Positions 12,346 through 48,273 of a stretch of 64,000 bases of DNA are shown piece by piece. Numbering within the stretch: position 1 is the first letter of the stretch; each line of letters begins with the position of its first letter. The stretch is from Chloroflexi bacterium bin20 (GTDB taxonomy: Bacteria > Chloroflexota > Anaerolineae > Aggregatilineales > Phototrophicaceae). A program made the position numbers and the translations under genes. Where the stretch lies: contig MPMG01000002.1 of NCBI GenBank assembly GCA_002238485.1, forward strand, positions 116,689 through 180,688, given 5' to 3'. The notes under the pieces are model-generated. The model was not told the origin of the DNA, did not search any database, and was given only the letters and a program-made list of their open reading frames with translations.

Positions 12346-13720
12346 ATGCTGAGCAAGAAGTTAGCTCTGGTAATTACGCTGTGTTTGTGCTACATTAGCC
12401 AACCAGCCAACCAGCCAACCAGCCAACCAGCCAACCAGCCAACCAGCCAACCAGCCAACCATAACGATAGCCCCTGAGCATCGCTGTTCGCCATATAACC
12501 GCAGCGATTATTCCTATCCTCAAAGTATCGAATTGCAGATCATAGCCGAGAATTTGAATGGCGATATCGTAAGTCCCTACACAGGCGAAGTCTTCTCCAA
12601 CCGGTCGCAAACAGACATTGAGCATATTGTCGCCACAAGCGAAGCGCATGACAGCGGCTTGTGCGCGGCAACTGAGTCGGTAAGGCGGCAATTCGCCAAG
12701 GACCTGGATAACCTCACACTAGCCAGCCCCAGTGTGAATCGCCACCAGAAGAGCGATAAAGACTTGGCGGATTGGTTGCCGGCACAAAATATCTGCTGGT
12801 TTGTCCAGACGGTTGTGCAGGTCAAAGCCAAATATGGCTTGTCAATGGATAGCCAAGAAGCCAATGTAGCAATAACCACCCTGAAGGTTTGCAATCCAAA
12901 ACCAGCCTGTTACAAGTCTGGCCAAGCCGACACGCTGAATTGTTACGCGGGGCGCTCTTCCACAGACTCTGCTCCCACCGCTGCGTCAACGACATCAACT
13001 GCCTGCTACACGGACGACAGTGCCTATGTGAATGGCGCAATCAATGTGCGCAGCGGTGCAGGAGTGAACTTTGCCAAAGTCGATGTGGTACAAAGCGCCA
13101 ATGTGTCTGTGCTTGACTCGACGCACGAGGCAGATTTCTGCTGGCTGAAAATCGGCGAGAATCGCTGGATTGCGCAGACTCATTTTGTGCTTGCCAGCCA
13201 TCCCTCCGTGGCTAGAACGACTTCGACGAGAGCAACTTCGACGGCGACGCCCCCGCAAGTTGACTCGAACGAAACCTGCTACACGGACGACAGCGCCTAT
13301 GTGAATGGCACAATCAATGTGCGCAGCGGTGCAGGAGTGAACTTTGCCAAAGTCGATGTGGTACAGAGCGCCACTGTGTCTGTGCTCGACTCGACGCACG
13401 AGGCAGATTTCTGCTGGCTGAAAATCGGCGAGAATCGCTGGATCGCGCGGCTGAACTATGTGCTGGCTACGAAGCCCGCTGTTGTTGTACCAACCGCCCA
13501 ACCTGTTGTTAGCCAACCTGTGGTGCAACAGCCGCAGGCGCCAGTACAACAGCCGCAGCAGCCTAGTGTGCCCAATCTGGAGTCGGTGGACAGCAATGGC
13601 AATGGGCGCATCACTTGCGCAGAAGCGCGTGCCGCCGGGTTGCCTATCCCTGTCCGGCAGGGGCATTGGGCATATCCATATATGCGAGATAGCAACAACG
13701 ATGGAATGGTCTGCACTTAG
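12346..13720 (+). CDS. Secreted HNH nuclease with two SH3b domains and excalibur domain; frame broken by 8-bp repeat (candidate phase-variable)
   Basis: The ATG at 12346 with an AGAGG site encodes a signal peptide (MLSKKLALVITLCLCYI) that runs into the tandem repeat and stops at 12477. The mature protein is in another frame, which is open from the repeat to 13720. Its domains are: HNH/DUF1524-like nuclease (ITIAPEHRCSPYNRSDYSYP, IEHIVATSEAHDSGLC, DNLTLASPSVNRHQKS, DWLPAQNICWF), two near-identical bacterial SH3 domains, a Pro/Gln linker, and a C-terminal excalibur calcium-binding motif (DSNGNGRITC and DSNNDGMVC). Gaining one 8-bp unit, or losing two, fuses signal peptide and nuclease in frame. 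As sequenced the gene would be OFF. Assembly error in the repeat is the alternative. Confidence 0.75.
12397..12460 (+). repeat. 8-bp tandem repeat (AGCCAACC) x 8
   Basis: Eight perfect copies of an 8-base unit sit between signal peptide and nuclease domain. None of the three frames contains a stop in the unit, so copy-number change shifts the downstream frame by two bases each time. Such tracts mutate by slipped-strand mispairing. Confidence 0.9.
13004..13175 (+). repeat. Tandem SH3b domain repeat, copy 1
   Basis: This 172-base segment encodes the first SH3b domain and differs from copy 2 at six positions by my count. The near identity points to recent duplication or gene conversion. Confidence 0.85.
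13277..13448 (+). repeat. Tandem SH3b domain repeat, copy 2
   Basis: Second copy of the SH3b-coding segment, offset by 273 bases (91 codons) from copy 1, in the same frame. Confidence 0.85.
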
Positions 13721-46699: not shown

Positions 46700-48273
46700 A
46701 TGAACCGCTTGTTGATTTGCCTTGCTATGCTGGCGCTGCTGGCTGGCGCATTCACGGGGGGGGGGCGCAAGATGAAAAAGTGCTCGTCATCGGGCATTCC
46801 GAAGTAACCGATTCCTACGATCCAGCGCACGGCTTCACCCAGACCACCGGCATCGTCAACCACGCCGCCTACAGCCAGTTGGTCACCTTCCCCGATGCAG
46901 ACGCCAGCGAAATCTTGCCGCTGCTCGCCGACAGTTGGTCGATCTCCGACGACGGGCTGACCTATACCTTCTCGCTGAATGCCGATGCGGTCTTCGCCAA
47001 TGGCGATGATATCGACAGCGACGATGTCGTCTTCAGCATCCAGCGCCTGCAAAATGTCAATGGCAACCCCAGCTTCTTGGCAGACCACATTGTCTCGGTC
47101 GAGGCGCACGATGCCGACACCGTCTCGATCACGCTGGACAATGTGCGCCCGTCTTTCTTGTCCGAGCTGACCAGTTATGCCTTCAGCATCGTCGATGCCG
47201 ATTCGGTACGCGCCAATGGCGGCACAGACGCCATGGACGCCGCCACCACCGACACCGCCGAAGATTTTATCAACAGCATGTCGCAGGGCAGCGGTCCGTA
47301 TGTCATGTCGCTGTGGGAGCCGCAAGTCCGCACCGAGCTGACGCGCAACGAGAATTACTGGCGTGACGCGCCCTACTTCGACCGCGTCATCATCATCAAT
47401 ATGCCAGAAGCCGCCACCCAAAAAGCCGCGCTGGAAAGTGGCGAGATCCACCTGGCGCTCGACTTGAGCACCGACCAGATGGACAGCCTGCGCGACAATC
47501 CAGACATCGCCGTTTACAGCGGTCCCAGCAATTACACCCACTTCGTGCTGATGAACGAAGACCCGGCTGTCGGCGGTCCTTTCAGCGAGCCGCTGGTGCA
47601 GTCGGCGGTCAAGCACGCGCTGGATTATGAAGGCTACCGCACGCTTTGGGGTGGCGAGACGCCCGGCACGAATATGTGGGTCGGTTTGTTCAGCGCCTTC
47701 CGCCAAGACCGCGCCTATGTCCGCGACCTCGACAAAGCGCGCGAGCTGCTGGCAGAAGCCGGCTATGGCGATGGCCTGGATGTTACCCTGCAGTATCCCG
47801 ACTTTTCGCTGGGCGGCGTCAACTTCAACACCAACGCCCAAAAGATCCAGGCAGACTTGGCCGAGGTCGGCATCAATGTGACGCTGGAACCCGGCGAGCT
47901 GCAAGTCTCGCTGGAGCAATACCGCAATGGCGAGCAGGGTTTTGCTTACTGGCTGTGGGGTCCGGATATTCTCGATCCGCTGGACTTCCTCAGCTTCATG
48001 CCCGGCGGCAAGGTGGCGAAAGAACGCACGAACTGGTTCATGAATGATGTGCCAGAAGAGGTGCAAGACATGATCATGGCGGCGCGCAGCACCAGTGATA
48101 CGGCCGCCCGGCTGGAGATCTTCACCGCGCTGCAAGAATGGAGCCAGCAGAATGCGCCTTATGCGCCCTTCAATGTGCCCCAGGTGCAGACAGCCTTCCG
48201 CGCCGACTTGCAGGGCTTCGTCTTCCACCCGCAGTGGCTGCTCGATGTGGCGATTTTGAGCCGCGGCATGTAG
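46700..48273 (+). CDS. Peptide/opine-type solute-binding protein (family 5), frame broken at a G10 tract
   Basis: The ATG at 46700, after AAAGGAG, encodes the signal peptide MNRLLICLAMLALLAGAFTG and then runs into ten G bases; in that frame it ends at 46807. The mature binding protein (QDEKVLVIGHSEVTDSYDPA..., NHAAYSQLVTF, ENYWRDAPYFDRVII, NWFMNDVPEEVQDMI) is in another frame, open to 48273. With 11 or 8 G bases the two would join as AFTGGGAQDEKV. The family binds peptides, glycosides or opines for ABC import. This is either a poly-G phase-variable gene in the OFF state, a pseudogene, or a homopolymer error. No permease genes adjoin. Confidence 0.8.
46756..46765 (+). repeat. G10 homopolymer tract at signal-peptide/mature junction
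   Basis: Ten consecutive G bases inside the coding region. Adding one or removing two restores the frame of the downstream binding protein. Poly-G tracts of this length are known slippage sites. Confidence 0.9.

What the first reader, a model, noticed from the sequence alone, without database searches (positions are those of the whole stretch)
12346..13720. 8-bp repeat switch between signal peptide and a secreted HNH nuclease
Eight perfect AGCCAACC units follow a clear signal peptide. The HNH-SH3b-SH3b-excalibur protein is in frame 2 while the signal peptide is in frame 1; the frame-2 reading is open all the way back into the repeat (ITIAPEHRCSPYN...). One extra unit or two fewer joins them exactly. 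This is the design of a contingency locus: cells in a population would switch secretion of a nuclease on and off. The tract encodes a harmless Ser-Gln-Pro-Ala-Asn linker in every frame. A phase-variable extracellular nuclease is not something I know described for this kind of bacterium.
Basis: partly seen in the sequence, partly recalled or inferred. Interest (0 to 1): 0.85.

Follow-up and report, generated by a model that had tools for sequence, protein, structure and literature searches.

The report
Repeat-length switch before secreted nuclease
In a bacterial genome whose closest named relatives are Chloroflexota, eight copies of an 8-base repeat separate a predicted signal peptide from a predicted secreted nuclease and leave the two out of frame, so gain or loss of repeats would likely switch the enzyme on and off.

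Summary
AGCCAACC x8 (12397-12461) lies between an ATG-led, signal-peptide-like stretch (12346) and an intact GmrSD_C/HNH-SH3-SH3-excalibur frame (to 13720). At 8 units the two are out of frame; 6, 9 or 12 units would join them. The array occurs once in its genome and in none of 33 other genomes of the genus. Comparison strengthens the switch reading: the closest homologues of the nuclease domain, in two same-genus genomes, carry poly-G tracts (13 and 14 G) at the same junction, also out of frame, and two 98%-identical database proteins imply other tract lengths. The syntenic relative has an intact leader and no repeat. The frames compared are stop-free and under purifying selection (dN/dS 0.24 and 0.29). 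Direct proof is missing: the only octamer count seen is 8 (the same peptide lies on three further contigs), no tract carrier was seen in frame, and no reads were available. Best reading: a slipped-strand contingency locus of the Opa leader-repeat design, apparently unreported for Chloroflexota and for a secreted nuclease. The genome holds other candidate switches, but 58 of its 67 distinct G/C tracts are not at the 5' positions I tested for.

The parts
12346..12396 (+). ATG start and signal-peptide-like coding stretch (MLSKKLALVITLCLCYI), with GAGAGG shortly upstream
   Evidence: Sequence. Relatives have a hydrophobic leader joined to the same mature start. Signal peptide judged by eye; no predictor was available.
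12397..12461 (+). AGCCAACC tandem array, 8.1 perfect copies: the proposed length switch
12475..12477 (+). TGA that ends the ATG-led frame at 8 units (43-residue product)
   Evidence: the same 43-residue peptide is P0122 on 3 contigs.
12464..13720 (+). Nuclease frame after the array (TIAPEHRCSPY... to stop), out of frame with the ATG at 8 units
12533..13720 (+). 395-residue ORF from TTG as listed mechanically and in the protein database (P0002); lacks the leader and the conserved start of the mature protein
12575..12778 (+). GmrSD_C (PF07510) HNH-type nuclease domain match
   Evidence: 28.8 bits, cut-off 23; H76, N105, N114, K118 invariant in the 8 closest rows.
13004..13202 (+). First bacterial SH3 (SH3_3) repeat, limits approximate
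   Evidence: Pfam SH3_3 reports two stretches; limits read from the sequence.
13310..13447 (+). Second bacterial SH3 (SH3_3) repeat
   Evidence: Best SH3_3 stretch.
13613..13714 (+). Excalibur calcium-binding-like C-terminus
   Evidence: Pfam 21.3 bits, just under the cut-off of 22.

Best explanation
The eight AGCCAACC units between the signal-peptide-like start and the HNH-type nuclease frame likely act as a slipped-strand (phase-variation) switch that would turn secretion of the predicted nuclease on and off. Shown: the array, the frame break at 8 units, the unit arithmetic, intact nuclease frames under purifying selection, poly-G tracts at the same junction in two close homologues, and a repeat-free intact version in the syntenic relative. 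Inferred: polymerase slippage changes the unit number by one or more; at 6, 9 or 12 units the ribosome reads through leader, Ser-Gln-Pro-Ala-Asn linker and nuclease and the product is exported; at other counts translation stops after about 43-70 residues or runs in a wrong frame. In the OFF state no full-length product is expected, because the nuclease frame has no common start codon before TTG 12533. Ecological use (degrading extracellular DNA, attack on or avoidance of phage, competitors or host) is speculation.
For: Array and arithmetic. Poly-G 13 and 14 at the same leader/mature junction in L014=L101 and L015=L103, each out of frame with its ATG-led leader. The window's nuclease domain groups with these carriers, support 100/95. 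P0018 and L103 are 98% identical but imply 12 against 14 G; P0020 and L101 are 98% identical but imply 14 against 13 G (counts from protein letters, glycine taken as GGG). dN/dS G013 against G018 0.24 (bootstrap 0.16-0.34) and window against G028 0.29 (0.20-0.39); stop-free in 2 and 1 of 2000 neutral simulations. G028 keeps the same gene neighbourhood at 81-84% DNA identity with an uninterrupted leader. G tracts are frequent in this genus: 28 of 29 same-genus genomes have a tract of 12 or more, against 30 of 92 from other genera.
Against: No octamer count other than 8 was found: the 8-unit peptide P0122 is on 3 contigs, longest 93,772 bases. The tract carriers whose state can be read from DNA (window, G013, G018) are all out of frame, and P0018 and P0020 are inferred to be. 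58 of 67 distinct G/C tracts of 10 or more in this genome are not at the 5' leader or start positions tested, so tracts may arise there without selection. MutS is present in 34 of 34 genomes, so slippage is not explained by its loss. For the nuclease domain alone, window against G028 has pN/pS 0.41, weaker constraint than against G013 (0.23). The nuclease domain was modelled at low confidence and no nuclease structure matched.
Confidence: 0.74

Rival explanations
1. A recently broken gene: the repeat expanded by chance, the nuclease is permanently off in this lineage and will decay.
For: Only 8 units seen; the three tract carriers with DNA in hand are off; G/C tracts are common in this genome, most of them outside 5' leader positions.
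Against: The nuclease frame is open over its whole length with conserved motif residues, and dN/dS is 0.24 between two tract carriers and 0.29 against the syntenic relative. A very recent break in the window's lineage alone would leave no trace in these tests.
Confidence: 0.15
2. Assembly or consensus error: the true number is in frame in every cell.
For: The genome is a draft in 22 contigs; repeats and homopolymers are error-prone.
Against: The same 8-unit peptide lies on three contigs whose longest is 93,772 bases, so none of them is the window's 482,508-base contig; they may still stem from the same sample. A 65-base array is short enough for one read to span.
Confidence: 0.05
3. Programmed frameshifting or internal initiation makes the product from the 8-unit allele, so the array is only a linker.
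For: Gene callers list a 395-residue protein from TTG 12533.
Against: That start drops the leader and about 20 conserved residues, including PE-RCS, invariant in 20 aligned homologues; no other common start codon precedes it in frame. I saw no slippery heptamer in the array by eye; recoding was not modelled.
Confidence: 0.05

Closest known systems
Opa proteins of Neisseria (CTCTT repeats in the leader-peptide coding region)
   Same: Out-of-frame short tandem repeat in the 5' leader region of an exported protein; unit number sets the frame by slipped-strand mispairing (passages of PMC3960869).
   Different: Unrelated protein and phylum; unit of 8 bases instead of 5; switching rate and strain variation known for Opa, not for this locus; the same junction carries poly-G in homologues here.
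Homopolymer (poly-G/C) contingency loci of Campylobacter and Neisseria
   Same: Poly-G at the junction in G013 and G018 is the usual tract type of those phasomes (recalled; search listings PMC6321876 and PMC5953494).
   Different: Nuclease cargo, Chloroflexota, no population data.
GmrSD_C / DUF1524 HNH nuclease domain proteins with excalibur and SH3 domains
   Same: Pfam match over cut-off and many relatives with PF07510+PF05901.
   Different: The relatives whose DNA I read, apart from G013 and G018, have no frame-breaking tract between leader and nuclease.

Membership tests
SSR contingency locus (phase-variable gene) | Short tandem repeat with unit length not divisible by 3 inside or before the coding frame | tested here: met
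   8-base unit, 8.1 perfect copies.
SSR contingency locus (phase-variable gene) | Change of unit number moves the gene between in-frame and out-of-frame | tested here: met
   Arithmetic for 3-14 units.
SSR contingency locus (phase-variable gene) | Tract length differs between strains or cells | tested here: inconclusive
   Octamer: only 8 seen. Poly-G homologues: 13 against 14 and 14 against 12, two counts inferred from protein letters.
SSR contingency locus (phase-variable gene) | Both in-frame and out-of-frame alleles of the tract exist | tested here: inconclusive
   No in-frame tract carrier of this gene seen; in-frame relatives lack the tract.
SSR contingency locus (phase-variable gene) | Frame kept by selection although broken in the sequenced allele | tested here: met
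   dN/dS 0.24 and 0.29, stop-free.
SSR contingency locus (phase-variable gene) | Reversible switching at high rate | not testable with these tools
   No reads or culture.
Opa family | Homology to Neisseria Opa outer-membrane protein | tested here: not met
   Pfam finds GmrSD_C, SH3_3 and excalibur-like matches, no Opa domain. The resemblance is of design only.
GmrSD_C (DUF1524) HNH nuclease domain | Profile match over the curated cut-off | tested here: met
   28.8 bits, cut-off 23.
GmrSD_C (DUF1524) HNH nuclease domain | Conserved His/Asn motif residues | tested here: met
   H76, N105, N114 and K118 invariant in 8 aligned rows; their catalytic role is recalled.
GmrSD_C (DUF1524) HNH nuclease domain | Nuclease activity | not testable with these tools
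   Inferred from the domain.
Excalibur domain | Profile match over the curated cut-off | tested here: inconclusive
   21.3 bits against 22 in the window protein; PF05901 is listed for many homologues.

The most novel reading that the evidence does not exclude
A whole phasome, not reported in the papers I could search, exists in a genus of animal-associated (probably sponge-living) Chloroflexota: exported proteins (nuclease, pectate-lyase-like adhesins, a fibronectin-III protein, a solute-binding protein) and a D12 DNA adenine methyltransferase all carry length-variable tracts at or near their starts, and the nuclease junction has recruited different repeat types (octamer, poly-G) in different species.
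Probability: 0.4. Interest if true: 0.8.

Novelty: new member of a known kind. Interest (0 to 1): 0.62.

Why it matters
Repeat-driven phase variation is known mostly from host-adapted pathogens. If it also governs secreted enzymes, adhesins and a DNA methyltransferase in uncultured Chloroflexota symbionts, these populations would be mixtures of secretion phenotypes that consensus genomes hide, and gene calls from such genomes would miss the exported form. It can be tested directly on existing metagenome reads.

Tried and rejected
Programmed frameshifting and internal initiation were considered and set aside: no start codon in frame before TTG 12533. Loss of mismatch repair as the cause of the tracts: MutS_I is present in 34 of 34 genomes. 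Octamer array elsewhere: none in own genome or genus. Other copy numbers of the octamer in the protein database: 31 candidates, 14 at E<=10, only P0122 is this leader; I judged the other 13 unrelated repeat peptides after reading 9 of them. Structure: AlphaFold2 mean pLDDT 68.4, nuclease part mostly low, Foldseek top 50 show SH3-like matches and no nuclease. PDB sequence search: one match at E<=0.01, to the excalibur end. NCBIfam: two matches, both far under cut-off. Literature: 'phase variation'+'Chloroflexi' gave 15 papers, none with either term in title or abstract (passages of PMC3711429 seen, the one on Chloroflexi not among them); 'phase-variable'+'Anaerolineae' and 'phase-variable'+'sponge symbionts' gave none; 'phase variation'+'signal peptide'+'extracellular nuclease' gave 4, listing only; octanucleotide search none. 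These searches cover open-licence papers only.

In one search thirteen minus-strand loci were read in the wrong orientation; they were redone and only those readings are used. Loci L036 and L037 (SH3-only matches) were not read. In one search, 2 of 80 loci lacked the motif I searched for and were dropped (L107, L144).

Full report
Observation. The window lies at G000:C4:116689-180688 in a 3.66 Mb draft genome of 22 contigs, 94% complete. The array 12397-12461 is eight perfect AGCCAACC units plus one base, far beyond chance (65 bases against 15-19 in 20 simulations). It stands between a signal-peptide-like start (ATG 12346, GAGAGG shortly upstream) and a long frame ending at 13720 with Pfam matches GmrSD_C (28.8 bits, cut-off 23), SH3_3 (28.3, cut-off 27, two stretches) and an excalibur match just under its cut-off (21.3, cut-off 22). 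At 8 units the start frame stops at 12477; 6, 9 or 12 units would join the frames.

Relatives. The nuclease protein matched in 43 of 61 genomes searched, though many matches are only to its SH3 part. I read the upstream side of 28 loci, the window's own included. In 10 of them (L009-L013, L016-L018, L026, L028) a leader runs uninterrupted into the same mature start; in two (L014 of G013 and L015 of G018) a poly-G tract stands at that junction; most of the rest have another N-terminal arrangement and two are fragments. In the scan of GTDB genomes, 78 of the 80 loci kept had the motif; six had some short repeat by loose criteria within 450 bases upstream, and only two of these, L101 and L103 (the same loci as L014 and L015), break the frame between leader and nuclease. 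The scan may leave out records of the window's own genome.

The poly-G homologues. In L014 the tract has 13 G and the ATG-led leader MKIFRSIVLALLW... ends after 21 codons; in L015 it has 14 G and MRIFFIIVLALI... ends after 21 codons. Database proteins P0020 and P0018 are 98% identical to these two but enter from another upstream start, which implies 14 and 12 G if glycine is GGG throughout. P0003 also shows a glycine run there; its state cannot be told. A tree of 96 nuclease-domain rows puts the window with G013, G018, P0018 and P0020 (support 100/95) and P0003 with repeat-free G028, G015, P0030 and P0004 (100/96); the fork joining these two groups is weak (85/55).

Synteny. G028 (named record VXNO01000190.1) has the same neighbours at 81-84% DNA identity, a nuclease at 77% over the matched part, and no repeat; DNA similarity is lost between 12277 and 12481, that is over the upstream region, leader and array. 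G013 and G018 match only 12481-12948. The protein tree and the neighbourhood thus disagree, which suggests that the gene is mosaic; the window's C-terminal end also looks like that of G028. I did not resolve this.

Selection. dN/dS is 0.24 (0.16-0.34) between the two poly-G carriers over 333 codons and 0.29 (0.20-0.39) between window and G028 over 316; neutral simulations stay free of stops in 2 and 1 of 2000. Against the other relatives synonymous change is large or saturated; pN/pS for the nuclease domain is 0.23-0.41 over ten comparisons, with G028 the highest. A gene long dead behind its tract would not look like this, but a break confined to the recent history of the window's lineage would escape the test.

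State seen. The 43-residue 8-unit peptide exists on three contigs with longest 93,772 bases, so not on the window's own contig; they may be reassemblies of the same sample. The nuclease cluster P0002 stands for 3 member sequences on 6 contigs. No other unit number was found. Every carrier that can be read from DNA is out of frame, which is against the reading as much as it is compatible with a mostly-off switch.

Genome background. Tracts of at least 12 G occur in 28 of 29 same-genus genomes (own included) in a draw of 121, and in 30 of 92 from other genera; the own genome has 55, the highest count seen, and the highest outside the genus is 15 (some tracts lie at contig ends). Of 67 distinct tracts of at least 10 in the own genome, a script placed 9 at 5' positions: 7 in a family with poly-C just before a leader, 2 in leaders themselves. 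The other 58 were not so placed. The poly-C family gave 17 loci in 3 of 34 genomes (12 in the own); an upstream ATG is in frame in 5, only out-of-frame starts were found in 9, and none was found in 3. One member matches Pectate_lyase_5; two leader tracts precede SBP_bac_5 and fn3 proteins; one tract of 11 G lies in frame inside a D12 adenine methyltransferase. MutS is present in 34 of 34 genomes.

Taxon and habitat. Named records of the closest matches are Chloroflexi, Chloroflexota or Anaerolineae MAGs. Prefixes such as COS, RHO, CAR and APA fit the sponge hosts of a MAG survey (passages of PMC8163846); that link, and a sponge habitat for this genome, are inferred.

Comparison with what is known. 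The design equals that of Neisseria opa, whose CTCTT repeats lie in the leader-peptide region and shift frame by slipped-strand mispairing (passages of PMC3960869). It is not a member of that protein family. My literature searches found no report of phase variation in Chloroflexota, nor of a switch of this kind on a secreted HNH nuclease (open-licence papers only). Hence: new member of a known kind, with an unusual host, cargo and unit length.

Noticed in passing
window 46756-46765: Ten G at the end of a leader (MNRLLICLAMLALLAGAF) before a family-5 solute-binding protein; leader and mature frame are out of register as assembled.
   Followed up: partly
L068:1502-1512 (own genome C3:52174 region): Eleven G in frame inside a D12-class adenine DNA methyltransferase: a candidate phase-variable methyltransferase.
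   Followed up: partly
L204-L220: Family with a poly-C run between start region and leader, followed by a conserved GTAATATC, in 3 of 34 genomes (12 places in the own genome); mixed in-frame and out-of-frame; one member has a pectate-lyase-like adhesive domain.
   Followed up: partly
L083:1502-1513: Twelve G at the end of a leader before a fibronectin type III protein, out of frame as assembled.
   Followed up: partly
L084, L087, L096 and others in the own genome: Clusters of several G and C runs within about 100 bases, without an obvious gene start; unexplained.
   Followed up: no
L203:1610-2617: A second HNH/SH3 protein in the same genome, with another N-terminal arrangement and an open frame of 335 residues.
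   Followed up: partly
window 12464-13720 against L100 and L101: The nuclease gene looks mosaic: nuclease domain nearest to G013/G018 by protein tree, C-terminus and neighbourhood nearest to G028.
   Followed up: partly
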